A stretch of DNA of 64,000 nucleotides from Lachnospiraceae bacterium (GTDB lineage Bacteria > Bacillota > Clostridia > Lachnospirales > Lachnospiraceae), in the NCBI GenBank assembly GCA_017442865.1, contig JAFRXK010000074.1, positions 1 through 64,000 of the forward strand. The letters are read 5' to 3'. The notes below the pieces were generated by a model. It saw only the letters and a list, made by a program, of their open reading frames with translations, did no database searches and was not told the DNA's origin. Positions 1 to 13,930 of the stretch are shown one piece after another; positions within the stretch are counted from its first letter, which is position 1, and each line of letters starts with the position of its first letter. The position numbers were made by a program, and so were the translations under genes.

Positions 1-238
1 AACGGGCGCACTTCATTTCTACGGTGGAAAATAACTTTCAACGAAGGTGTAGCAAAAGTGTGTCAATGCCCTAAACGGGCGCACTTCATTTCTACGGCCT
101 AAACCCACTGATGTGGGCAAAAGATATCTGTGTCAATGCCCTAAACGGGCGCACTTCATTTCTACCGCTACTATGTTGAGAGGCCTAAACCCACTGATGT
201 GTGTGTCAATGCCCTAAACGGGCGCACTTCATTTCTAC
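1..238 (-). CRISPR. Leader-proximal end of a type III-D CRISPR array (3 full repeats, 1 partial)
   Basis: Full repeats lie at 59-95, 129-165 and 202-238, and a partial one at 1-22. The core is 36 bp, but the base before it (T on the plus strand) is the same in all three full copies, so a 37-bp unit fits better. Spacers are 23-58, 96-128 and 166-201. On the minus strand each repeat ends in ATTGACAC(A), close to the ATTGAAAC 5' handle common in type III crRNAs. The array is therefore transcribed leftward, in the same direction as the cas genes. The repeat holds a short hairpin (GCCC-loop-GGGC). The spacer at 166-201 is next to the leader and so is the newest. The array continues beyond the window. 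Confidence 0.97.
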
Positions 239-623
239 CCTGCCTCTCAGAGAGCCTTTATTTTAGCGGGTTTTTGGGCTCTTTTTTGCAGGTATTTGTC
301 TGAAAATTCTGAAAACGAGGTTTTTTATGGTCATTTTTTGTTTTTTAAATTTTCAGGGTAATATATGTAAAATACATCCTTTTATTGTATTACAGTTTAT
401 GCCCTATTTTGCTTAAATAGCCATACACTTTTCTAACCTTCGCTTTAATATTATACCACATCTTCTGGTTGCATACCAGTTTTATTATCAGTTATTACGA
501 TTTTTTATGACGATATTTTGTCATCATACTCTATATAAAGTCAGCCTTATCAGCTTATCATTATTTATAAAGTTTATAATACTTTACTACTTAATCATTC
601 CATTTTTTGTTTCGCTAATTATT
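239..623 (-). promoter_or_regulatory. CRISPR leader, AT-rich, no gene
   Basis: This 385-bp stretch separates the last cas-operon gene from the first repeat and contains no convincing ORF. It holds several inverted repeats: a 9-bp pair CTGAAAATT (300-308) with AATTTTCAG (348-356), a pair AGAGCC (251-256) with GGCTCT (277-282) followed on the plus strand by a T-run, and ATGAC/GTCAT around 508-525. Position and AT-richness fit a CRISPR leader with its promoter. That the inverted repeats serve adaptation or regulation is inference. Confidence 0.7.
450..479 (-). promoter_or_regulatory. Putative leader promoter: extended -10 with an inverted repeat over the -35 position
   Basis: On the minus strand the sequence TGGTATAAT (458-450) is an extended -10 element with a consensus TATAAT hexamer. 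At the -35 distance there is no TTGACA. Instead the perfect inverted repeat CTGGT-TGCAT-ACCAG occupies 465-479. Transcription would start near 443 and give about 200 nt of leader RNA before the first repeat. The palindrome could be an operator. Confidence 0.5.
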
Positions 624-1931
624 TTAAGTTGCACTGCCAAAATATAAATAATATAACTCCTCAATAAATTTTTCATACTTATTTCTTGCTCTTGATACTA
701 TAGTTTTGTTCTTGTTTAATATCTCCGCAATTATTTCATCACTAAACTTAAAATCCTTTTTTAGGAGATTATAATACATTGAATAAAAAATGTCTTTCTC
801 TAATAAATTATTATCTAGATTAGAAATTGCACGATTTACATAATCCAAATTAAAAATATTGTTACATAATTTTATTGCACTAGGTTGTAGCATAGTATAG
901 ACATCTCTATTTCCTGCCGGTTCCTTTTTATACCGAATGTAATATATCCCTCTATCCTCCTCATTCTTATATTTACTACCAAGATTTTTTTCAAATTTAT
1001 CAATTTTACTATTTGTTGCATTTACGGATTTAAGTTTTAGCAAAATCAATAAATCTTTTGTCAAAAAAAGCTGCAATATATTTCTATTTGGCTTACTTGA
1101 TGCTATTTTTACTTGTTCCCATTCTGTATCAAAATCATCTAAAAACTTATTAAAAAAACCGCTTACAACTTCTCCGTACGTTCTGTCGCCGTATGAATCA
1201 AATTGCTCATATACATCAAACTCATTTGAAATAATGTCACCCTGTGTAACATTTCCCTCTTCATTTATTGGCTTTGACAAACTACTGGTAAAATCAAGGC
1301 TCTCAACAATACAAATAGCTACCTCTATATCTCTTTTTGTAACACTAACAGAATCACTTTTTAGTGCTTCATCTATAGCATCTACAACGCTCTTATTATT
1401 TATATCCTTGCTTTTTTTTATTATTTTGACAAGTTTCATGATTTTAACCTTATTTTTTGAAGGTCTGTCAATACTGACTCCATTTTTGGCCATCTCGTTT
1501 TCAGCTGATGCTATATCCGCTTTCTGTCTATATTTAATACCGAAGTTTTGTAAAAACAAAACTTTTCTTCCTTTTGAATCTTCTCCAGTATACCCTTTTA
1601 TGGTTTCCATAAATGTTTCCATAAACACTAATGTATCAATAGTATTTTTTTTCTGTTTTTGAAAAGCAATATTTGAGTCATACTCCACATTTTTATTTTG
1701 TTCAGATAAATATGTTGTTAATTTGGTGTATTCTTTAGGACTGTACGCTTTAAAAAGGTCAACAACAAAACTATCATAACATTTGTTGCTTTTTATATAA
1801 CTATATCTTGCTTCTTTATCTTCCAAGGTCTTTTTCGGCATTAACTTAATCGTATTCAATACATCTTCATACTTCTCTTCAAAATCTTTACCTGCCTTTA
1901 ATCTCTCTTCTCTTTTATCTTCCTTTGTCAA
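624..1931 (-). CDS. CRISPR-linked divergent sigma-70-like protein
   Basis: This 435-residue protein is not a recognised Cas family. It starts at TTG with AAAGGAGG about 8 nt upstream, 31 nt after the CARF gene, so it is probably in the same operon. I see three sigma-like blocks. Residues about 98-150 resemble region 2 (METFMETIKGYTGEDS, then a long helix with LQNFGIKYRQK). Residues 154-235 resemble region 3: IDRPSKNKVKIMKLVKIIKK, then SSLSKPINEEGNVTQGDII, which recalls the 'SLDEPI.EDG.T.GD.I' stretch of sigma factors. Residues 395-425 form a helix-turn-helix like region 4 (FSDEIIAEILNKNKTIVSRA). The region between about 240 and 390 is unassigned. Last gene before the CRISPR leader. The sigma reading is inference from motifs; an unrelated helical DNA-binding protein is the main alternative. 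Confidence 0.5.
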   Translation of the reverse strand: MTKEDKREERLKAGKDFEEKYEDVLNTIKLMPKKTLEDKEARYSYIKSNKCYDSFVVDLFKAYSPKEYTKLTTYLSEQNKNVEYDSNIAFQKQKKNTIDTLVFMETFMETIKGYTGEDSKGRKVLFLQNFGIKYRQKADIASAENEMAKNGVSIDRPSKNKVKIMKLVKIIKKSKDINNKSVVDAIDEALKSDSVSVTKRDIEVAICIVESLDFTSSLSKPINEEGNVTQGDIISNEFDVYEQFDSYGDRTYGEVVSGFFNKFLDDFDTEWEQVKIASSKPNRNILQLFLTKDLLILLKLKSVNATNSKIDKFEKNLGSKYKNEEDRGIYYIRYKKEPAGNRDVYTMLQPSAIKLCNNIFNLDYVNRAISNLDNNLLEKDIFYSMYYNLLKKDFKFSDEIIAEILNKNKTIVSRARNKYEKFIEELYYLYFGSAT

Positions 1932-1962
1932 ATATATCGCCTCCTTTTAAGTAATTACAATT

Positions 1963-2574
1963 TTAAATATTAAATAATTCATTAATTGATTTTCTTATAT
2001 CTGATACATCAAGTCCCTTCAATACGTCTATTAGATCTGAAAGATTTTTAAATTCCGTTAAATCATAAATTTTTGCTTCTTCATATATTGGCTTACCATT
2101 TACTCTTGGTATTTCACCATAATATACTCCTTCAACTTCACTATCCTTTATTTTCTCAATAAAATTCATGGCATAAAGTAACATTGCAGACATTGGCTTT
2201 GTTCCAAACGTAATATCTGCGTATACTAGTGAATCATCAGGAATTTCATCAAGCAAATTCATAAGCAGATTAATTCCTATACTTTTACTCTGACTGCTTT
2301 CTATTATGAGCTCTTTTATATCCTTTTTGTTTACTCCAAGATTCTCAAGCTCCTGTACCAAAATTTCATAATTATCAGGTGTATCCTGATTATCCGTTCT
2401 CACCACAATAACTTTAACATCATCACCTTTACTATAGCTGTCTGCGATAACCGGAATTATTGGAAATGATGTTTTCCTATTGTTTAATAGTTCAAATCCT
2501 ACAGGATTATAAATAACTTTCAACAAATCATTCTTGCCTTGTAATGATACGGCACTTATATATGTTTTTACCAC
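1963..2574 (-). CDS. Stand-alone CARF-domain protein (TM1812/Csx1-like sensor without an effector domain)
   Basis: About 203 residues. The motif ADITFGTKPMSAMLLYAMNF followed by EGVYYGE matches the second half of TM1812-type CARF domains, which bind the cyclic oligoadenylates made by Cas10. No HEPN, nuclease or helix-turn-helix is visible; after the CARF fold only about 40 helical residues remain. A longer frame opens with an ATG at 2598, directly after the csx1 stop. However, that stretch itself contains AGGAGGA placed 8 nt before a GTG at 2574, so I take GTG as the true start. Known single-CARF proteins include ring nucleases that degrade the second messenger. Because a sigma-like gene lies directly downstream, a role as its ligand-controlled regulator is an alternative. 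Both roles are inference. Confidence 0.7.
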   Translation of the reverse strand: MVKTYISAVSLQGKNDLLKVIYNPVGFELLNNRKTSFPIIPVIADSYSKGDDVKVIVVRTDNQDTPDNYEILVQELENLGVNKKDIKELIIESSQSKSIGINLLMNLLDEIPDDSLVYADITFGTKPMSAMLLYAMNFIEKIKDSEVEGVYYGEIPRVNGKPIYEEAKIYDLTEFKNLSDLIDVLKGLDVSDIRKSINELFNI

Positions 2575-2598
2575 TGAACATTCCTCCTGTTTACACAT

Positions 2599-4623
2599 TT
2601 ATATTTTGATTGGTTTCAAATTCAATATTGCCATTGTTTTTTCTGTTTCAGTATATTTTGATTCGTCATATATAACTTCTAATTCTAATTTGCTTAACTG
2701 AACCACTGTTCCATCATCTGTAACTCTTTCAATATTCTCAATGCATTTATCCCTTAAAATCTCTGAATATTGTATGAGTTGGCTTAACTTCAGATTGTTC
2801 TCCATAATAACATGCACTCTATTTACAGTAAAATACTTCTTAATGTATTCTGACAAAAGAATAGCATTTGTAATAACATTATTTTTGCATTCATTTTTTA
2901 TTTTTTTGGCAAATTCATCAGGCAATAAATATACATCATAAGTCTTTTTACTTGATTTTGACTGCAAATAATTGCTCCTACATCTCTTAATATATATATC
3001 AGATGTATCATTTGACACAATAAATCTAATATCTTTATTCGACTTTACAATATCAGCCTGCTTGTCCGAAAAAGCATAAATATTATAAATTTCTTTTTTG
3101 GTATCAGAATTAATTTTATGTCTCAGATTACTTAAACAATTCATGAAATCATCAATATCTTTTTTGTTTTTATTCAACAACAAGGCATCCAAGCTTTCAT
3201 CTATTCTGTTAATATCAGCATATTTAGTATTATTATTCAAAGAAAAAACATGAGCAAACATATCTCTTATCTTTTTAACTCTTTCTCTTAAATATTCTAT
3301 TTCTAAAAGAAGTCTGGAATTCTCATCTGTACTGTTCACATCAATAAGCTTAAGCCTATCTAATGATGCTTTTCTATTGTTTTCATCACAACAGTTTTCC
3401 ATTGTACACTCGAGTCCTTTGTACTCTAAATACATAACTACTAAGTAACTGCGCAATGCCTCTAACGCAGTTGCTATAGCCTGGCCATATCGATTTTGCC
3501 GTATATACCAGTTTCCAAGAAGATACTGCATTTCAGCCATATTTTTCGGCGTCATATTATTGAATATTTTTATATTTGCTTCGTCAACACAATCAAGCAG
3601 ATTCTCTGAAAGCACTCTTTTAAGCATTGCTTCCAAATCAGCATATCCGCCTATGCTCTTTAATTTATCTTTTTCATTTAAATATACCATTAATGAACTT
3701 AACGACTTTACAATTCCATCAAAATCATTTATCTGCGTTGCCCAGTCAAACGAAGCTAATATCTGTTTAAGTGGATTTTCGTCTGACATTTGATTTAATA
3801 TAGAAACTGAATTACCAGTATTTTTAAATTCGCTTACACCATTCGTCAAATTCAAAACATTGATAAGCTCTTTCAAATCAACAACAGGCGCAACATCTTT
3901 ATTCTCACTGCAAACTTCTAGATTACCATAATATACATGCTCAATTGCTATATCATATTCAGTTGTGTTTTTAAGATAATTTAATACAATCAGATTATAC
4001 AAAGGCAATGAACGGAATGAATGTGTTATATCAAATGAAACTTCATAATGTATGCCTTTTTCAAACATACTTTCAATACCAGATATTATTTCGTAATTTT
4101 CAAGCAGTTGCTCTGAATCTATTCCATATCTCACGAGTATAACCCGAACATCTATACCGGGTTTTATACAATCAAACATTTTTGATTTTTCAAAGATATT
4201 TTGAATAGTTGAATTGCATTGCTTTAATTCTTCACCTGCAGTATCTCTGCCATATGTTGTTTCAATATCGTACAAGGTTTTATAATCTTTAAAATTATTA
4301 TAGTTTTCATTTGAAAAGAAGTTATAAAAACCTGACCATGAAGATTTTACTGTCCCAATTATAATGACCTTGTCAGGCATATTGTCCTTGATTAATGGAT
4401 AGGCAACAAATGCAACTCTTTCTGTTGTCTGATTATTTATGTTATATGCCGTTTCTCTATAATTGAAACTTTTATCATTATATGTATCAAGTATTCTTTG
4501 TTCTTTTTCTTGTAATGTCAAAGAATTTTTAGTTATATTATCACCAGATTTTAATTTATCTCTAAAATCTATATATGTTCCTGTTCCCAATGACAAAATC
4601 AATATTCTTTCACACCGACTCAT
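2599..4623 (-). CDS. csx1: CARF-HEPN ribonuclease, Csx1 type (TIGR02221/TM1812 family) with C-terminal extension
   Basis: 674 residues. The N-terminal CARF domain (about 1-250) has LILSLGTGTY near the start, VIIIGTVKSSW (86-96) and FDITHSFRSLP (197-207), the signature of this family. A helical HEPN domain follows, with the catalytic R-X4-H motif RDMFAH at 453-458. In this family the CARF domain senses cyclic oligoadenylate from Cas10 and switches on non-specific RNA cleavage by HEPN. Residues about 510-674 form an extra C-terminal region I do not recognise. The start ATG follows a GGAGA site. It is the main visible effector of the locus, translated right after the TIGR03986 RAMP gene. Confidence 0.85.
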   Translation of the reverse strand: MSRCERILILSLGTGTYIDFRDKLKSGDNITKNSLTLQEKEQRILDTYNDKSFNYRETAYNINNQTTERVAFVAYPLIKDNMPDKVIIIGTVKSSWSGFYNFFSNENYNNFKDYKTLYDIETTYGRDTAGEELKQCNSTIQNIFEKSKMFDCIKPGIDVRVILVRYGIDSEQLLENYEIISGIESMFEKGIHYEVSFDITHSFRSLPLYNLIVLNYLKNTTEYDIAIEHVYYGNLEVCSENKDVAPVVDLKELINVLNLTNGVSEFKNTGNSVSILNQMSDENPLKQILASFDWATQINDFDGIVKSLSSLMVYLNEKDKLKSIGGYADLEAMLKRVLSENLLDCVDEANIKIFNNMTPKNMAEMQYLLGNWYIRQNRYGQAIATALEALRSYLVVMYLEYKGLECTMENCCDENNRKASLDRLKLIDVNSTDENSRLLLEIEYLRERVKKIRDMFAHVFSLNNNTKYADINRIDESLDALLLNKNKKDIDDFMNCLSNLRHKINSDTKKEIYNIYAFSDKQADIVKSNKDIRFIVSNDTSDIYIKRCRSNYLQSKSSKKTYDVYLLPDEFAKKIKNECKNNVITNAILLSEYIKKYFTVNRVHVIMENNLKLSQLIQYSEILRDKCIENIERVTDDGTVVQLSKLELEVIYDESKYTETEKTMAILNLKPIKI

Positions 4624-4661: not shown

Positions 4662-6662
4662 TCATTCTTTGTTATTTTTTTTACTGATTATTTTTTTAAT
4701 ACTTGGTAATGCTTTTTTATGTTCATCCTTAACAGGTGATTTGCGCGCTCTAAAATCATCCAGTGTCATATATCTAATATCTTCATTATCAGGAATAGTT
4801 TTACTGTTCTTCATTTCAAAGAATTGCTTGATTTCATCTAACTCTTCAATTTTCCTGCCAGATAAATGTTTATTGATTGATTTTTTATAAGCATTAATTT
4901 TCGCATCAATATCTATATACTCAAACGGATCCAGATTGAATTCAGAATTATAAGCTTCTTTTTTATCAATCGATTTTGCATAATCTATAGCCAAAGATAT
5001 TTTTCCATATCCATACGGCTTCGCTTTTCCAACATTCATCCATGAATCATCGCTTAACTTTATGCTCCACAACAATAAACCAAGCTCATCCTCAGAAAGA
5101 TTCTGAAAACGCACTTTACCCTTAAATACAGTTCCTTCATCCAAAGGAGTAAATGACGTCGCAACATTTTCTTGCTTATCTGTAACTTCACCAGGAATAA
5201 TTGTATTGTGAAGCCAATATTGTTTTACTCCTCTAAGTTTAAAACCATCTGTATTATATGTCACCGCTTTATTTGGGTCATTCTGAATTAAATAATCAAG
5301 ATAACTTGTTGGCTTTGGCTCAGATAAAATCATGGATTCCTCTTTATCATATTTATTAACATTTACTTCAACAGCATCCGAAAATGAAATTCTTGATTTA
5401 TAGCTTCCAGACTCATTGCTGTAGCCAAACATTGCTTTGCTATAATCAATGATTCCCGGCTTATGACTTGCATTCAAACCGACTTTTATTGTATTATCAT
5501 AAAACAGTCTTAATCTTGGAGTAAAACCGAAATATAATCTGTCAAGTTCAATGTAAAAAACCGGTTTTGTTTCACCTCTTTCAGGCAAATCGAAAAATTC
5601 TCTTCCGCCAAATTGTTTTAGAGTATTGCTTCTCTTTTCAATATCCGTTTTGAACGCTGCCACATCTTTATCAGGAATTTCTATCCTTTCTTTCTCCTTG
5701 TTAATTTTCGGAATGATGTATACAGCTTTTTTATCGTTCATTTTTCCGGAGCTTATAACCCATCCATCTTTAGAATATCTACCTTTGACGCCAACTGCTG
5801 TTACATTTTTTAAGTTAGAAATTTCATAGCTAATTTCTTTATAATAAGGTTTGTAAGACTCGTTCGGAACGCCCTTATACACAGTCTTTCCCTTACTATC
5901 CTGACCTTTTTTAAATTCTTTTGCCTCATGCTGTAGAATATTATGGTTTTTACTAACAAAGAAATCATATTTAAATGGCTTGTTATGAAGAAATTCGTCT
6001 ATAATTTTTCTTTCACTTATAACATAATAATTCATTTCTCCGTACTCTGAATTAATAACATCCACATCTGTCTTATATATTACATATTTTCCATCTTCGT
6101 TCTTAATATATCCGGCTTTAACATGTTTTAATGCATTGATTTCTTTCTTATTCTTATTTGGATTTGGAGCTCCAAGTATTTCATTATATCTTCCTCTCTC
6201 CACGCCATTTGCAACATTTCTATACATCAATGCGTAGTCACCAATATCATCAAAAATGCTTGACAATCCTAATATCTGAACATTATTCCTTATAAGGCCT
6301 CTCATTGTGCTTCCCGGAATTGCATATTTTCCATATGCATTTTTACAAAACTGCTTATTACCATCATCAACTATAATTGGTCCTTTAGCAGTAATCGTAT
6401 ATGAGATTTCTCCGGTAAATAACTCATCTGATGAATCATTTCGTGCAACCAACTTATCTTTTGGATATTTAAACACCTTATCTGTGAATGAAATAAAGTT
6501 ATATGGTGCTCCAACATATTTTGATGACTCACTATTGTTATTATTACCACCATTATTACTTTTGATATTTTTTTTATTATTTGAATAACTATCTTTGAAT
6601 TTCTTCTCTTTAAAACCTCCACCCATCATCATATTTGACAGATTACTTATATCTATTCCCAT
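4662..6662 (-). CDS. Type III-D RAMP protein, TIGR03986 family
   Basis: 666 residues. The N-terminal 45 residues are a low-complexity Asn/Lys linker. APYNFISFTDKVF (about 52-64) is the characteristic opening of TIGR03986 proteins. IPGSTMRGLIRN is a RAMP helix motif, and GKAKPYGYGKI near residue 560 is a glycine-rich RAMP loop. The protein is probably a Cas7-group backbone subunit with large insertions that helps hold crRNA in the effector complex. The ribosome binding site AGGAGG precedes the ATG. It lies 5 bp after the Csx19-like gene. The family assignment is confident; its exact position in the complex is not shown by the sequence. Confidence 0.8.
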   Translation of the reverse strand: MGIDISNLSNMMMGGGFKEKKFKDSYSNNKKNIKSNNGGNNNNSESSKYVGAPYNFISFTDKVFKYPKDKLVARNDSSDELFTGEISYTITAKGPIIVDDGNKQFCKNAYGKYAIPGSTMRGLIRNNVQILGLSSIFDDIGDYALMYRNVANGVERGRYNEILGAPNPNKNKKEINALKHVKAGYIKNEDGKYVIYKTDVDVINSEYGEMNYYVISERKIIDEFLHNKPFKYDFFVSKNHNILQHEAKEFKKGQDSKGKTVYKGVPNESYKPYYKEISYEISNLKNVTAVGVKGRYSKDGWVISSGKMNDKKAVYIIPKINKEKERIEIPDKDVAAFKTDIEKRSNTLKQFGGREFFDLPERGETKPVFYIELDRLYFGFTPRLRLFYDNTIKVGLNASHKPGIIDYSKAMFGYSNESGSYKSRISFSDAVEVNVNKYDKEESMILSEPKPTSYLDYLIQNDPNKAVTYNTDGFKLRGVKQYWLHNTIIPGEVTDKQENVATSFTPLDEGTVFKGKVRFQNLSEDELGLLLWSIKLSDDSWMNVGKAKPYGYGKISLAIDYAKSIDKKEAYNSEFNLDPFEYIDIDAKINAYKKSINKHLSGRKIEELDEIKQFFEMKNSKTIPDNEDIRYMTLDDFRARKSPVKDEHKKALPSIKKIISKKNNKE

Positions 6663-6667
6663 AACAC

Positions 6668-7039
6668 TTACCTCCTATTTTCTACACCTCTTAGTCTTGT
6701 AAGTTTAACTTTGACTTGTCCATCCTCATCATATTCAAGATATTCCTGAACAATTAGGTATTTATCTCCTTTGTTTAATTCATATTTCTTTATAACAATA
6801 TTCTCTTCAATATCATCATCTTCAACATCTATTGCCTGCAATACTCCATCTATTGTGAATACATGCCGTTCTTTGTTTTGTGAAAAAAAACGAGCCTCAT
6901 AACATTCATCCCAATTTATATCTGTTAATTCGCAAACCTTCAACAAACGTATTTCACTTAACAGATAGATTAATGCATATTCATATTCATCAATATTAGC
7001 AAAAAGCCCTGCTGTATCGCTTATTTTTTTATATTTCAT
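6668..7039 (-). CDS. Small type III-D associated protein, Csx19-like
   Basis: 123 residues, overlapping the preceding RAMP gene by 4 nt (ATGA), so the two are translationally coupled. The pattern ECYEARFFSQNKERHVF resembles the 'EaRLFg...E...' stretch of Csx19 (TIGR03984), a protein found specifically with Csx10 in type III-D loci. The rest is acidic and beta-rich with no catalytic motif that I can see. Position between two RAMP genes fits Csx19. The sequence match is short, so another small subunit of the effector complex remains possible. Confidence 0.5.
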   Translation of the reverse strand: MKYKKISDTAGLFANIDEYEYALIYLLSEIRLLKVCELTDINWDECYEARFFSQNKERHVFTIDGVLQAIDVEDDDIEENIVIKKYELNKGDKYLIVQEYLEYDEDGQVKVKLTRLRGVENRR

Positions 7040-8427
7040 TGTTTTGTCCCCCTTATTACCGAATCAATACAATGTGATATTATTTTGTCTTTATCTTCAA
7101 TCTTGCCGCTGCTAAAGTCTATTGTTGCAATGCCCTGTGATTTTTTTATCTCCATCTTATCAACAATTACAAAGCCCTTTCCAACATTATATCCTCCACC
7201 TAAGTTCATTGTTCCTATAGCCAGATCCCTCAATGCCATTAGTAATAATCCACATGTTCTTTCCGGAGCATTATAATTCAGAACAGTGATGTGCAGCCTC
7301 ACATCTCCAAACACATTTTTCTCCGTAAACAAACTTCCATTAATTACACCACCGGTAAACTTATCAATATGTATTCTATGCGACAATCTTATCTCATCAT
7401 TTTCTTTTTTATTACCTACTATGGTATCATAGAATCGTATATTGCCTAAATTACCTTTAGCATCCTTACTAGATTTTACGCCAAATGTTTTACCAATAAT
7501 GTCTTCAGCCTTAACACCTTTACTTTCTAAATATGAAGCTATATTCTGCATCTGATTTCTTATAGCTCCTTTAAATGAGCTTCCCGGTATAATATAGTCA
7601 TCATTTGCATTTTTTATATTCTCACAATCCGGAGCCTTCTTACCGCTTTCATTTGATGCTGATGAAATACCTTTTACAAGCAAATCCCCTTCTGTATGTC
7701 CTTCAACAATTATGTCATAGGCATTATATGTATTAGAACACTCCAAGATATCTTTTTCAATATATTCATCAATCTCATCTTCTTTAAACCACATTTTTCT
7801 GTCTTCATCTTTATTCATGTCAAAAATTTTACAACGCAGCTTTTCAATTTTAATGTAACCACAGCCATTGCTCTTTTGACCCCCAAACTGCACTTGACCG
7901 GCATTTACAGCTGGAAAAACTGTTTCAAATTCATCTATATAATCTATCTTGTCACCTTTTTTATTTGTATAAATATATATAGGGAAATTGAACTTTGAGC
8001 CTACGCCAATGTATTCCATATTAAATTTATGTCCTGCGTTTTTATCTGTTCCCTTTACTATGCTTTCTGCGCAAGAACCCGTTTTAGGATTAATACTTAC
8101 TCGCGGACGCAACTCCAATTTTAACGATTCATCCTTCACAAAAATTCCATCGCCAAACTTAATTCTGCTGCAATAATCTGATGAATTTTCATTTTCTGCA
8201 AACTCGCTTTTTCCAAAAAGATCATCATAACTATCTATATAATTGTTTTTATAATACTGACCAAATAATCCAGCAATGCTAGTAGCCTGAATAAACGGCA
8301 TATTATCTACAGGATGAACTAATACATTTTCTTTATCTCCTAGTCCACTTCCCACATGCATTGGTTCTTTACATACAGCAGTAACTAAATACTTTACAAT
8401 AGTGTTGTATTGAATATTAGCAGACAT
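7036..8427 (-). CDS. Double-Cas7 RAMP protein (Csm3-like, type III-D)
   Basis: 463 residues carrying two RAMP units. The first has MHVGSGLGDKE and SIAGLFGQYY near the N-terminus and QFGGQKSNGCGYI about residue 185. The second has IPGSSFKGAIRNQM, then RIHIDKFTGGVINGSLFTE, then NLGGGYNVGKGFV. The last three motifs follow the order of Csm3/Cmr4 proteins: crRNA-binding helix, thumb with an aspartate, glycine-rich loop. Backbone Cas7 subunits of type III complexes cleave target RNA with a conserved aspartate, but the active residue cannot be fixed here without an alignment. The ATG directly follows the csx10 stop (TAAATG) with GGAGG just upstream. Confidence 0.8.
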   Translation of the reverse strand: MSANIQYNTIVKYLVTAVCKEPMHVGSGLGDKENVLVHPVDNMPFIQATSIAGLFGQYYKNNYIDSYDDLFGKSEFAENENSSDYCSRIKFGDGIFVKDESLKLELRPRVSINPKTGSCAESIVKGTDKNAGHKFNMEYIGVGSKFNFPIYIYTNKKGDKIDYIDEFETVFPAVNAGQVQFGGQKSNGCGYIKIEKLRCKIFDMNKDEDRKMWFKEDEIDEYIEKDILECSNTYNAYDIIVEGHTEGDLLVKGISSASNESGKKAPDCENIKNANDDYIIPGSSFKGAIRNQMQNIASYLESKGVKAEDIIGKTFGVKSSKDAKGNLGNIRFYDTIVGNKKENDEIRLSHRIHIDKFTGGVINGSLFTEKNVFGDVRLHITVLNYNAPERTCGLLLMALRDLAIGTMNLGGGYNVGKGFVIVDKMEIKKSQGIATIDFSSGKIEDKDKIISHCIDSVIRGTKQ

Positions 8428-9978
8428 TTAATTACCTCCTTCCTTATTATCAAAACGAATAAGATTTATCAAAAAATCAAGTTTAATTCTATCAACTGCA
8501 TCATCATCTAAAATATTATTTCTATCAATGTTCATTATCTTTTCTCGAATAATTTTTCTATCGGCATCAATAATATCTATTAAATCACTATTAATTATTT
8601 TTCTAATAAAACTAAATGCCTTTTTAATACTTCTTCTTTTTTTCTGAACATTGCTTGAATCTTCTTTGTCTTCTGTGTGATTCATATATGCATTAATTAA
8701 TTCAAATGCTCTTTTAGGATTATATTTATTTGCTACCGCTATCGCTTCAATATTTCCAAGCTGGCTATTGCTTGCATCTCCCTTAGCGAATGAATTTGTT
8801 ACAATATACACTTGTGCAACCTTTTCTATTAGTCTTCTATAGTAAGATTGCGCAATAATATTAATTGTTGCCATATCGTCATCACTTTCTTTAAATTCTG
8901 ATATAGAATATTTCTTGCAATCTCCCGGACATTTGTATTTTATATCACCATAATGATTGATAAAAACGACTCTACCAAAACCTTCATTCTTACGTTCACC
9001 TATACCATTATTGACTATTTTTAAGATATTTTCATATTTAAATTCTCCATCAAATGTTAAGTGAAAAACGCTTCCCTGTTCAAACATCAGCATTGAAGGA
9101 ATTTTAGTCTTCCAAGTACGGTTATAGCCTTTTACATCAACAGTCGATGTTGAACAATATTTAATATCCAGATTATCAACTTCCATCTGTTTTTCAAGCT
9201 CATGAACATCTATACCACATAATTCACCTAATTCATTTCTCATAACGGTATTAGAAAGCAGCATCATATAACATTCTTTATTTACATTTTCAGCAGGAAG
9301 ATATTGTTCATATGGGATACTATTAACATAATCACATGAAACGACTTCACATTTTCCAAAACCGGCAGAGCGTGCATTTCCAATCGTCACTATATCCTTC
9401 AATGTTTTTTTTATCTCATCTTTAAGCTCTATATTTTCACTTTCAATAGCTATATATCCTGTAAATAAGTGATTTTCTTGTATGTATTCATTTCTAAATA
9501 CGTTTTGTTTTTCACTCTTATCAATATTAATTTTTATTTTCATATCTGAATTAATATCAACATTATAATAATAAATACAATCGTCATTTTCAAAATAGCA
9601 ATATCTACCTAATGCTGCCCTTTTATATCCTTCAGAGAAATCTCCTGCCACCACAACATTTTGAATTTCTTTTTTTCCTTTCTCAATTCTCTTATCTTCA
9701 TAAAAACCCTTTGGTGAAGGCATCAACACATGTTTTCCACCTTCATTTTCAATTGTCAGATATGCATTTAAGAATTTGATTTTGTTGGAAAACAGCTCTT
9801 TTTTATTATCCTCAAACAGCTTTTTGTTAATATTGGCTAATTGACTAATAACATAACCTCTTATGGTACTTCCAGGGATATAGCGTAATGTAATCGTCTG
9901 TCCACTTTGACTTGTGCTATCGTCTGCAATTCTAAGCGGCTCTATATTTCTTATTTCATATTTTAAATATTTTATCAT
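8428..9978 (-). CDS. csx10: Csx10, Cas5-group RAMP of type III-D
   Basis: 516 residues. RYIPGSTIRGYVISQLA near residue 32, GNARSAGFGKCEV near 200 and GIGERKNEGFGRVVF near 330 are the spaced RAMP motifs of Csx10, the protein that defines type III-D. Csx10 takes the Cas5 place and would cap the crRNA 5' handle next to Cas10. The last 150 or so residues are charged and helical (including NSQLGNIEAIAVANKY and a Lys/Arg-rich stretch). Since no separate cas11 gene is present, this tail may supply the small-subunit function; that is inference. The ATG follows GGAGGTATAAGAGTA, and the gene starts 5 nt after the Csm3-like stop. Confidence 0.85.
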   Translation of the reverse strand: MIKYLKYEIRNIEPLRIADDSTSQSGQTITLRYIPGSTIRGYVISQLANINKKLFEDNKKELFSNKIKFLNAYLTIENEGGKHVLMPSPKGFYEDKRIEKGKKEIQNVVVAGDFSEGYKRAALGRYCYFENDDCIYYYNVDINSDMKIKINIDKSEKQNVFRNEYIQENHLFTGYIAIESENIELKDEIKKTLKDIVTIGNARSAGFGKCEVVSCDYVNSIPYEQYLPAENVNKECYMMLLSNTVMRNELGELCGIDVHELEKQMEVDNLDIKYCSTSTVDVKGYNRTWKTKIPSMLMFEQGSVFHLTFDGEFKYENILKIVNNGIGERKNEGFGRVVFINHYGDIKYKCPGDCKKYSISEFKESDDDMATINIIAQSYYRRLIEKVAQVYIVTNSFAKGDASNSQLGNIEAIAVANKYNPKRAFELINAYMNHTEDKEDSSNVQKKRRSIKKAFSFIRKIINSDLIDIIDADRKIIREKIMNIDRNNILDDDAVDRIKLDFLINLIRFDNKEGGN

Positions 9979-9983
9979 TACTC

Positions 9984-10553
9984 TTATACCTCCTTAACTT
10001 CACTAATTTTTACTTTACCAAAACCTCTATTACGCATCGTTCCTATCCATTTTATTAGTAACATCACATCTTTAATCAGTTCCTTATCTTTTTCATCGCA
10101 TTTTATTTCACTAAAAAAAACAAGTCCTTTATTAACACATCTGCAATATCTTAATGAACCTTTTTTAGTCATGCCATCTTCATCTATTTTTGTAAACGTT
10201 CTAATATTGGTTAGCGAATTCGTTATTTCACTAGGATCATCCTGTATTTCTTCCATAACAACTTTCTTTACGTAATCTGTTAATTGAAAATCTGAAAATA
10301 CGAGTTTACCTGATTCATCTGTACTACTTTCACCTTTTTCGCCTAATAATCTTTTGACTTCAGCATCAATATTATCAATTCCCTTCCATGTTAAATATCT
10401 GGTTAGTTCTTCACGAAAAATTCCTTTGAATGTTCCCCCCTTATAATATGGGAATCCATATTTATCACAAAGGACCGATATATCTTCTCCTCCAGGTATA
10501 CTTGTTCCATTTCCAAATACTACATCAGATAATAATTCCATCTTAATCTTCAA
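9984..10553 (-). CDS. Csm3-like Cas7 RAMP subunit
   Basis: 189 residues. The N-terminus has FGNGTSIPGGEDISVLCDKY, then YYKGGTFKGIFREELTRYL, and the C-terminus has WIGTMRNRGFGKVKI. These are a Cas7 core beta strand, the crRNA-contacting helix and the glycine-rich loop. At this length it is a single compact Cas7 domain without large insertions. I use the TTG start at 10553, which is preceded by a GGGGGG purine run; an ATG four codons later is the alternative. It sits between cas10 and csx10, as in other type III-D operons. Confidence 0.8.
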   Translation of the reverse strand: MKIKMELLSDVVFGNGTSIPGGEDISVLCDKYGFPYYKGGTFKGIFREELTRYLTWKGIDNIDAEVKRLLGEKGESSTDESGKLVFSDFQLTDYVKKVVMEEIQDDPSEITNSLTNIRTFTKIDEDGMTKKGSLRYCRCVNKGLVFFSEIKCDEKDKELIKDVMLLIKWIGTMRNRGFGKVKISEVKEV

Positions 10554-10566
10554 AATAAATCCCCCC

Positions 10567-12117
10567 TTAGTAATCTAATTTTATGAAAGTATCACTTAAT
10601 TCAATTGCATCAAATAATACAGATCTTTTTATCTTATCACTAGTTTCAACAAACACTTTTCTATCCAGTCCTTTTCCGCTTCCAATTTTATCAGTATCAA
10701 CATCAACAAATATTCCCTGATAACTATCAAGCGTTACATCCTCTATTTTATTAAACACAAGAAAATGTTTTGCTGCATCTTCTCCTTCTTTCAAAATACC
10801 CCTCAACGATTTAAGTTTTCCTCTAGCATAATCCATATCTTCATCAATAAAACCGGAAATTAATTTTCTAAACTTTTCGTATTGACGTATTTTTTCTTTG
10901 GTCATGATTTCATCAGCAGAACTAACAATATATGGTCTCATCTCCAGTCTGTTTCCATCTTTTGTTGTGTAGTTTAAACGAATTTCCTCTAACGTATCCT
11001 TTATTTCGCCATACTCTATATGCCAGTCAATAGCTGATATATCGCTTCCTGAACCATCTTTACTTAACTCTGCTCCGAATCTCTTTGCGTTTGAACACAA
11101 GCTTTCTGCAAGCTCATACGCCTTGTAAAACGGGTATTTTTGATGCACAATAGCGACACCTGCACATGCAGCATAACCTTTACCATCAACGCTATTTTTC
11201 ACCTCTGCTTTGCTCAATTCTTTAATAAAAATCGCAGCACACTCAACTCCGATTCTTCCTTCCGTAACAAAACAAATATCATCACCCTCTGTTATTATTC
11301 TACGTATTGGCAAAAATCCTTTGTCTAATTCAAGGTCTTTCAAATTACCTTCTTCAATATTCTTTACAACACTGCACACAGTATTAAAATATGCCTGTTT
11401 AAAGGCCTCATCAATAGACTGGCTGAATTCTTTAATTTTACATTTGAATTCTGGCCATTTCATATTGCGCAGTGTTTCATCATAAAGATTTTCAACTCTC
11501 TTACCCATTGCGTTTCCGTCAATATGAACAACTGCAATAAAATTAGATTCATTTTTACTTCCACCCAAATTTTTTAATTCATATACATTTTTATAGTTTT
11601 GAGGTGTTAGATTGTTTTCAATTTAATGCATATAATTATTAAAACAATCATCTTTTTCATCATTCTGTTTCATAACAGGCTTTAGTGTTTCACTATTAAT
11701 CTTTTCTACGCCAAAGCTTCCCTGATGAAATGCAGCTTTTCTTTTTGCTTTTTTATCTTCAAGTTTTTTTGTTAATTCTTTTAAGTTTTCCCCAGGTGTC
11801 ATTGTATCTTTATATTCTATTGATGTTGCAAAAACAAGTATATCTGTATGTTTTTTATAAATCTCGGATGTAATTATCTTTATAAAACTATACGATTTAT
11901 CCTTATCTTCAAACTCTAATACAACATGTCCACCGCCAGAATATACTAGGTTGTCTTTCTCTGAAAAAATGCTCTCATCATTTATCGTTTTCTCAAAAAA
12001 CTTTGGACTCATAATCCATGCAATTAAGCAAGAATTATCTACATTATCCTTAAGCTTTTTACTCTTAAAGATAAAAGCCTGCTTCTGCGAAACCTCTAAA
12101 ATAGTCAATACACTCAT
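10567..12117 (-). pseudogene. cas10: cas10 interrupted by one in-frame TAA stop (or read through)
   Basis: Two open frames, 164 and 333 residues, are in the same reading frame and are separated by a TAA at 11623-11625 plus 18 sense codons. Read together they give a compact Cas10 of about 516 codons. The N-terminal half has TILEVSQKQAFIF and VYSGGGHVVLEF (58-69), the first palm domain. The C-terminal half has VVHIDGNAMGKR and ITEGDDICFV, the second palm domain with metal-binding Asp and the catalytic DD pair (EGDD in place of GGDD). No N-terminal HD nuclease is present. The first half has a good site (AGGAGG, ATG); the second half has only a TTG without one. CAA to TAA is the simplest origin. 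Sequencing error, a recent mutation or stop readthrough cannot be told apart here. Confidence 0.8.
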
Positions 12118-13108: not shown

Positions 13109-13930
13109 TCATTTTAACGCCATATATGCTAATCTAATTGCATCATTTAACTCTCCTACAGCACATAAATGACCTGATTTATGGCAAAATTGAAATGTTT
13201 TAATCGACGTTAATGAAAATAATGTGTCAACATCTGCGCCTCTCCACTCTTTTGGAAATGCTTTTTTAGGAATCATTGAATTTTCTTCAGTCGGAACTGC
13301 TTGAACTATATAACCACCTCGTACAGAAGGAAAAACAACGTACAAAATTTTTGTTCCCTTTACTGCATCTTTCCAAGGAATCATTTCTTTCATTACAAGT
13401 ATATTGTCACTATTTTGTTCAATCATTTTTGTTACTATATCATATGCTTTATGTCTCGAATTAATTGATTCGAAATGTCTCTCTAAAATTCCTTTCGCAA
13501 AATCAACAGCATTCGAAAAAAGCAAATCTGAATTTTGTTCTTTCATATCCCAACGAGGATTCATATCAGAAATGCAAGTTGACATTGTATTCTTTTCACC
13601 TGTATTATCAGTCAAATCTATTATCTGAACAAATTCTTGATCAAACTCTTTAGCATCATCAATGCTTAATATTTCAGTTCCAAATTCTTCCCATAATAGT
13701 CCAAATGATGCGTATGGCACACCATTATCTCTTACCTTATTATTCTGCATATGATGATCATACTTTCCCATTCCAATATCAAATACAATTCCATCATATT
13801 CTTTTGGTGCAATCATTCCTCTTTCTATTATTATGTCGGGATACAATATTTTCAAAAGAGCAGCTCCAAATACATCATCTGCATGAAATATACCACCATG
13901 CGTAAATGCTTTTCTAGGTTTTATATTCAT
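13109..13930 (-). CDS. MYG1 family (DHH-like) hydrolase at the head of the cas operon
   Basis: 273 residues. THGGIFHADDVFGAALL (10-26) and DIGMGKYDHHMQ (51-62) are the two metal-binding motifs of the MYG1 (UPF0160) family, which is related to DHH phosphoesterases. GVPYASFGLLWEEFG and the C-terminal FPSVRGGYIVQAVP also fit. Eukaryotic MYG1 is a 3'-5' RNA exonuclease; bacterial members are little studied. It is the first gene of the type III operon, with AGAGGA before its ATG and only 27 nt to cas6. A job in degrading RNA or cyclic oligoadenylate is plausible from fold and context but is inference. A housekeeping gene caught beside the locus is the alternative. Confidence 0.8.
   Translation of the reverse strand: MNIKPRKAFTHGGIFHADDVFGAALLKILYPDIIIERGMIAPKEYDGIVFDIGMGKYDHHMQNNKVRDNGVPYASFGLLWEEFGTEILSIDDAKEFDQEFVQIIDLTDNTGEKNTMSTCISDMNPRWDMKEQNSDLLFSNAVDFAKGILERHFESINSRHKAYDIVTKMIEQNSDNILVMKEMIPWKDAVKGTKILYVVFPSVRGGYIVQAVPTEENSMIPKKAFPKEWRGADVDTLFSLTSIKTFQFCHKSGHLCAVGELNDAIRLAYMALK

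What the first reader, a model, noticed from the sequence alone, without database searches (positions are those of the whole stretch)
10567..12117. Cas10 gene split by a single in-frame TAA
The two halves are in the same frame, separated by TAA at 11623-11625 and 18 sense codons. Both palm domains look intact, including the catalytic DD pair. The downstream half has only a TTG with no ribosome binding site. Either signalling is dead in this strain (with csx1, CARF and sigma genes left as passengers), or the stop is read through, or it is an assembly error. A CAA to TAA change is the simplest origin.
Basis: seen in the sequence. Interest (0 to 1): 0.7.

Follow-up and report, generated by a model that had tools for sequence, protein, structure and literature searches.

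The report
Nonsense-broken cas10 in type III-D CRISPR
A gut-type bacterium's type III-D CRISPR immune locus has its alarm-signal gene (cas10) cut in two by one stop codon that no relative shares, most likely a recent inactivation of that one locus, while a second, intact CRISPR system in the same cell can still make the alarm signal.

Summary
On the minus strand, a type III-D cas10 frame (12117-10567) is interrupted by one in-frame TAA at 11625-11623. Codons 1-164 encode palm 1. The 351 codons after the stop encode palm 2 (EGDD) and the C-terminal helices, and they lack a credible start: no Shine-Dalgarno sequence, and the only nearby TTG is the codon of a conserved leucine. In relatives, 29 full-length cas10d genes are single open frames; two others carry frameshifts elsewhere. 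So this is not a conserved split or a conserved readthrough signal. Nearly all conserved residues, including the active site, are intact, so the lesion is young or is a base-call error; without reads the two cannot be separated. The claim that signalling is dead holds at most for this locus: the same genome has an apparently complete type III-A system with a full-length GGDD Cas10 and Csm6, plus type I-C genes. Best reading: a recent nonsense inactivation of the III-D complex, tolerated because other CRISPR systems remain; cas10 nonsense mutations are a documented escape route in Staphylococcus epidermidis. Mostly ordinary, but a natural test of whether CARF effectors of one type III locus can be driven by another.

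The parts
11626..12117 (-). cas10d 5' part: palm 1 domain, 164 aa, ATG start with strong Shine-Dalgarno
11623..11625 (-). in-frame TAA stop, codon 165 of the cas10d frame, just after the disordered palm1-palm2 linker, in a predicted helix (157-170)
10567..11622 (-). cas10d 3' part: palm 2 (HIDGN, EGDD) and C-terminal helical domain, 351 codons, no own start or Shine-Dalgarno
11566..11568 (-). TTG (proposed restart) = codon of conserved Leu184; homologues use mostly other Leu codons
12152..13081 (-). cas6, intact
9984..10553 (-). cas7/csm3-like (III-D), intact, strong Shine-Dalgarno before a TTG start
8428..9978 (-). csx10 / cas5 (III-D), intact
7036..8427 (-). cas7 (tandem RAMP), intact
6668..7039 (-). 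csx19, intact
4662..6662 (-). large cas7 (666 aa), intact
2599..4623 (-). csx1-type CARF-HEPN effector, 674 aa; HEPN motif RDMFAH present
1963..2598 (-). stand-alone CARF protein, 211 aa
624..1931 (-). 435-aa protein of unknown function, conserved neighbour of the CARF gene in other type III loci
1..240 (-). CRISPR array next to the operon (4 repeats here, running off the contig; the other end is on contig C1)

Best explanation
A recent nonsense mutation has inactivated the cas10 gene of an otherwise complete type III-D locus. Shown: the frame starting at 12117 meets an in-frame TAA after 164 codons; palm 2 with the EGDD cyclase site and the C-terminal helical domain lie beyond the stop and have no recognisable start of their own. 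Inferred: the product is a palm-1 stub that cannot make cyclic oligoadenylate and probably cannot complete the effector complex, so this locus no longer signals to its own Csx1 and CARF proteins. Inferred: the loss is tolerated because the cell has an intact type III-A system and type I-C genes, and the stranded CARF effectors are either passengers or are driven in trans by the III-A Cas10.
For: Single in-frame stop with both parts matching one Cas10d profile. All 29 full-length relatives are uninterrupted, and further genomes have no internal stop. No Shine-Dalgarno at any candidate restart, whereas the other genes from 13930 to 1931, except the CARF gene, have one. The proposed TTG is a conserved Leu codon inside a segment that aligns with helix L238-F245 of III-Dv Cas10, which moves on target binding. 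TAA is the commonest stop in the window (29 of 43) and TAAA its commonest context; no UUA-anticodon tRNA among those found. Conserved sites nearly untouched: 2 deviations at 102 columns, within the range of intact relatives, as expected for a young lesion. Backup: III-A Cas10 of 799 aa with HD and GGDD, Csm2-5, Csm6; I-C genes. Precedent: cas10 nonsense mutants recovered as escapers in S. epidermidis III-A (PMC3784566).
Against: No reads and no second strain were available, so the stop could be a base-call error or a minority allele. The stop lies near the one flexible joint of the protein (about 8% of stop-prone codons lie in the linker), as a tolerated split would. Nothing beyond the stop has decayed. 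No self-targeting spacer was found among the 8 spacers examined, so the simplest selective reason for loss is not seen.
Confidence: 0.6

Rival explanations
1. The TAA is a consensus or base-call error, or a minority allele, in a draft genome; the real cas10 is intact.
For: The genome is an 85-contig draft, the III-D array is broken across contig ends, and several tRNA species (e.g. Ala, Ile, Asn, Asp, Phe) did not appear. A second conserved gene, cvfB on contig C1, also has a single in-frame stop. No further lesion in 351 downstream codons.
Against: In about 461 kb only two single-stop splits were found, so the sequence is not generally error-ridden. The difference is of the substitution type and not in a homopolymer, unlike the indels common in poor assemblies.
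Confidence: 0.22
2. A working two-piece Cas10: palm 1 and palm 2 + C-terminus are made as separate chains (by restart near the stop) or partly joined by readthrough, and assemble in the complex.
For: The stop is just beyond the disordered palm1-palm2 linker (AF2 128-154 below pLDDT 50, stop at 165). Both halves retain conserved residues. A TTG lies 54 nt downstream, before palm-2 strand 1 (residue 193).
Against: No relative is split there. No Shine-Dalgarno at any candidate start. The TTG is a conserved Leu codon, and starting there would cut the segment equivalent to the activation helix. TAA/TAAA is the normal terminator context here. No suppressor tRNA found.
Confidence: 0.1
3. Extension of the best explanation, not exclusive with it: the CARF effectors of the broken III-D locus stay useful because cOA from the III-A Cas10 activates them in trans.
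For: Intact III-A Cas10 in the same genome. csx1, CARF and the 435-aa gene are open and full-length. Loci lacking effectors are enriched in genomes with several type III loci, which suggested inter-locus signalling (PMC11229360). III-G and III-H, which lost cyclase activity, also lost CARF genes (PMC12669027), whereas here they remain.
Against: The III-A locus has its own Csm6, whose family is commonly cA6-driven, while Csx1-type proteins commonly use cA4 (PMC12409355), so messengers may not match. Open genes are also expected if the loss is recent.
Confidence: 0.3

Closest known systems
Type III-D Cas10 (Cas10d); Synechocystis III-Dv complex, PDB 8s9t/8s9x
   Same: Read-through model superposes on 8s9t chain C (Foldseek E 1.3e-23, TM 0.77 by query); no HD domain; palm 2 with xGDD; neighbours csx10/cas5, csx19 and several cas7 genes.
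   Different: Frame interrupted by TAA at codon 165; motif EGDD; the first cas7 and the cas5 are separate genes here, not fused as in III-Dv.
cas10 nonsense escape mutants of Staphylococcus epidermidis III-A (PMC3784566)
   Same: A single in-frame stop in cas10 of an otherwise intact type III locus.
   Different: There selected in the laboratory against a targeted plasmid; here found in a draft genome, III-D, with a second intact type III locus and no identified selective target.
Subtypes III-C, III-G, III-H, III-I with inactive or lost Cas10 cyclase
   Same: Loss of cOA synthesis by the type III complex (PMC12669027).
   Different: Those are subtype-wide losses by active-site replacement or domain loss, in III-G and III-H with CARF genes lost too; here the active-site residues are intact beyond a stop and the CARF genes remain.

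Membership tests
CRISPR-Cas subtype III-D | Cas10 of the III-D clade without HD nuclease domain | tested here: met
   Both parts score best with PADLOC Cas10d; no HD hit; nearest solved structure is the III-D Cas10
CRISPR-Cas subtype III-D | csx10-type cas5, csx19 and multiple cas7 genes in the operon | tested here: met
   PADLOC Cas5_IIId 1.5e-46, Csx19 2.9e-16, Cas7_IIId 3.1e-60, 5.6e-65 and 2.5e-167
CRISPR-Cas subtype III-D | uninterrupted cas10 (needed for an active system, not for subtype assignment) | tested here: not met
   TAA at codon 165; activity itself not tested
Recent nonsense pseudogene | disruption absent from orthologues | tested here: met
   29 full-length relatives uninterrupted; no stop inside further hits
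Recent nonsense pseudogene | no translation restart for the distal part | tested here: met
   no SD at any candidate start, by sequence only
Recent nonsense pseudogene | stop present in the cell's DNA, not an assembly error | not testable with these tools
   no reads; only one genome in the genus
Programmed stop-codon readthrough | stop and context conserved in orthologues | tested here: not met
   no relative has a stop there
Programmed stop-codon readthrough | leaky stop context or suppressor tRNA | tested here: inconclusive
   TAA-A is the commonest terminator context in the window; no UUA-anticodon tRNA among those found, but the tRNA set is incomplete
Conserved two-gene Cas10 | homologues encoded as two proteins with own ribosome binding sites | tested here: not met

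The most novel reading that the evidence does not exclude
A natural two-polypeptide Cas10, with palm 1 and palm 2 + C-terminus made separately and meeting in the complex, so that cOA synthesis depends on low-level restart or readthrough and is thereby dampened.
Probability: 0.07. Interest if true: 0.65.

Novelty: new member of a known kind. Interest (0 to 1): 0.3.

Why it matters
If the stop is real, this strain is a natural cas10-null for one of two type III loci while the CARF effectors of the null locus are open and full-length. That makes the proposed inter-locus cOA signalling (PMC11229360) directly testable: the III-D effectors either are activated by the III-A Cas10 or are passengers. 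If it is a base-call error, the locus is an ordinary III-D system.

Tried and rejected
Conserved split gene: rejected, relatives are single frames. Frameshift instead of nonsense: rejected, one frame throughout. Two frameshifted relatives as evidence for recurrent cas10 loss: rejected. L033 (Eubacterium plexicaudatum) has shortened frames in several other cas genes too, which suggests an indel-prone assembly; L034 is a contig of about 2.4x coverage. Self-targeting as the reason for loss: no spacer of 8 matches the genome outside the array beyond chance; no match to the 20 nt shared by two spacers in viral contigs or to their 50-nt union in phages. A fold of the 435-aa protein gave low confidence (pLDDT 59) and no significant match. 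Literature searches for natural split or pseudogene cas10 in III-D gave nothing direct.

Full report
Observation. The gene is on the minus strand. Reading 12117 down to 10567 gives 164 codons, TAA (11625-11623), 351 codons and a stop, all in one frame. The first part matches positions 2-151 and the second positions 175-460 of the same 462-position PADLOC Cas10d profile, so this is one gene with one stop. The surrounding operon is type III-D: cas6, cas7/csm3-like, csx10/cas5, a tandem cas7, csx19, a large cas7, then csx1 (CARF-HEPN), a stand-alone CARF protein, a 435-aa protein and a CRISPR array at the contig edge.

Comparison with relatives. A scan of one genome per species gave 32 related loci, 35-55% identical. 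Of these, 29 contain cas10 as one open frame from palm 1 to the C-terminus, one is cut by its contig end (L029), and two have frameshifts at other places (L033, L034). L033 has shortened frames in several other cas genes and L034 comes from a contig of about 2.4x coverage, so both may be sequence errors. Searches of whole genomes of the family and order added further cas10d genes (some may be the same species again), none with an internal stop. The genus has no second genome.

Where the stop lies. It is in the joint between palm 1 and palm 2, at a column with no conserved residue. A structure prediction of the read-through frame (an arbitrary residue placed at the stop, for the fold only) is confident (pLDDT 87, pTM 0.88). 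It puts residues 128-154 in disorder and the stop, residue 165, in a helix of residues 157-170. The nearest solved structures are Cas10 of the Synechocystis III-Dv complex. About 8% of codons one step from a stop lie in this linker region, so the position is only mildly unusual.

Can the second part be made? The other genes from 13930 to 1931, except the CARF gene, have a Shine-Dalgarno sequence; no candidate start for the second part has a usable one. The TTG at 11568 encodes a leucine conserved in relatives, where the codon is mostly CTG or CTT. By alignment it lies within the segment matching helix L238-F245 of III-Dv Cas10, which is displaced when target RNA binds, so a protein starting there would lack part of it (inference). 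TAA ends 29 of 43 long frames in the window, most often followed by A. The tRNAs found include no UUA anticodon, although the set is incomplete. Restart and readthrough are therefore disfavoured, not excluded.

Age. At columns at least 90% conserved, the window protein deviates at 1 of 31 before and 1 of 71 after the stop, within the range of intact relatives (0-4 and 0-8). About 54 random substitutions (5% divergence) in the second part would be needed to expect another stop with 95% chance. The lesion is therefore young on that scale, or not real.

Error or real? Reads were not available. In about 461 kb of the same genome only one other single-stop split of a conserved gene was found, cvfB on contig C1, so the sequence is neither full of such stops nor free of them. 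Both a real mutation and a base-call error remain open; the real mutation is preferred because the sequence looks otherwise clean.

What the cell still has. The genome also carries a type III-A operon on contig C49: cas6, a 799-aa Cas10 with HD and GGDD, csm2-csm5 and an array whose repeat also occurs on contig C25, where cas1, cas2 and csm6 follow. Contig C24 carries type I-C genes (named from the translations). The claim that signalling is dead in the strain is therefore not supported; at most the III-D complex is. Whether the III-A Cas10 makes a messenger that the III-D Csx1 or CARF protein can use is unknown. Csm6 proteins studied are commonly cA6-dependent and Csx1-type proteins cA4-dependent (PMC12409355).

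Mechanism proposed. Shown: the frame and the stop. Inferred: a palm-1 stub without the cyclase site and without the C-terminal domain, which in III-Dv runs along the Cas7 filament (PMC11026444), so no cOA from this complex and probably no complete complex. Precedent: two independent cas10 nonsense mutants and several cas10 frameshifts among S. epidermidis cells that escaped their III-A system (PMC3784566). No self-targeting spacer was found that would explain selection for loss.

Verdict. Observation confirmed; interpretation partly supported. Most likely a recent nonsense inactivation of one of two type III loci (0.6), with a base-call error next (0.22) and a working split protein unlikely (0.1).

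Noticed in passing
window 624-2598; L008:618-2385; L024:2194-4552; L036:180-1466; L113:5310-7227: A stand-alone CARF gene directly followed by a 376-562 aa protein recurs in type III loci beside cas10 (in L036 the CARF gene is cut by the fragment's edge). The second protein has no significant match in Pfam, NCBIfam, PADLOC or PDB sequences; its weak Foldseek matches include sigma factors (best E 0.39, not significant). Possibly a cOA-controlled regulator pair.
   Followed up: partly
window 96-129 and 166-202: The two spacers nearest the operon in the III-D array share a 20-nt stretch (GGCCTAAACCCACTGATGTG) at overlapping ends, as if taken from the same protospacer region twice; no match in the own genome outside the array, IMG/VR (exact 20 nt) or the phage collection.
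   Followed up: yes
G000:C49 (L099), C25 (L100), C24 (L101): The same genome carries a type III-A system (Cas10 with HD and GGDD, csm2-5, csm6, cas1-cas2) and type I-C genes.
   Followed up: yes
L091:4190-5056 (G000:C1): A cvfB-like gene (S1 domains, CvfB winged helix) is also split by a single in-frame stop (TAG at 4532-4534).
   Followed up: partly
window 13109-13930; L009, L020, L021, L024, L033, L034, L113: A MYG1-exonuclease family gene (PF03690) sits near the III-D-type operon in the window and in seven related loci, which suggests a link between MYG1 and these type III loci.
   Followed up: partly
L113:7224-8723: A more distant Cas10 in a type III locus has AGDE in place of GGDD, beside a CARF + 427-aa pair of the same kind.
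   Followed up: no
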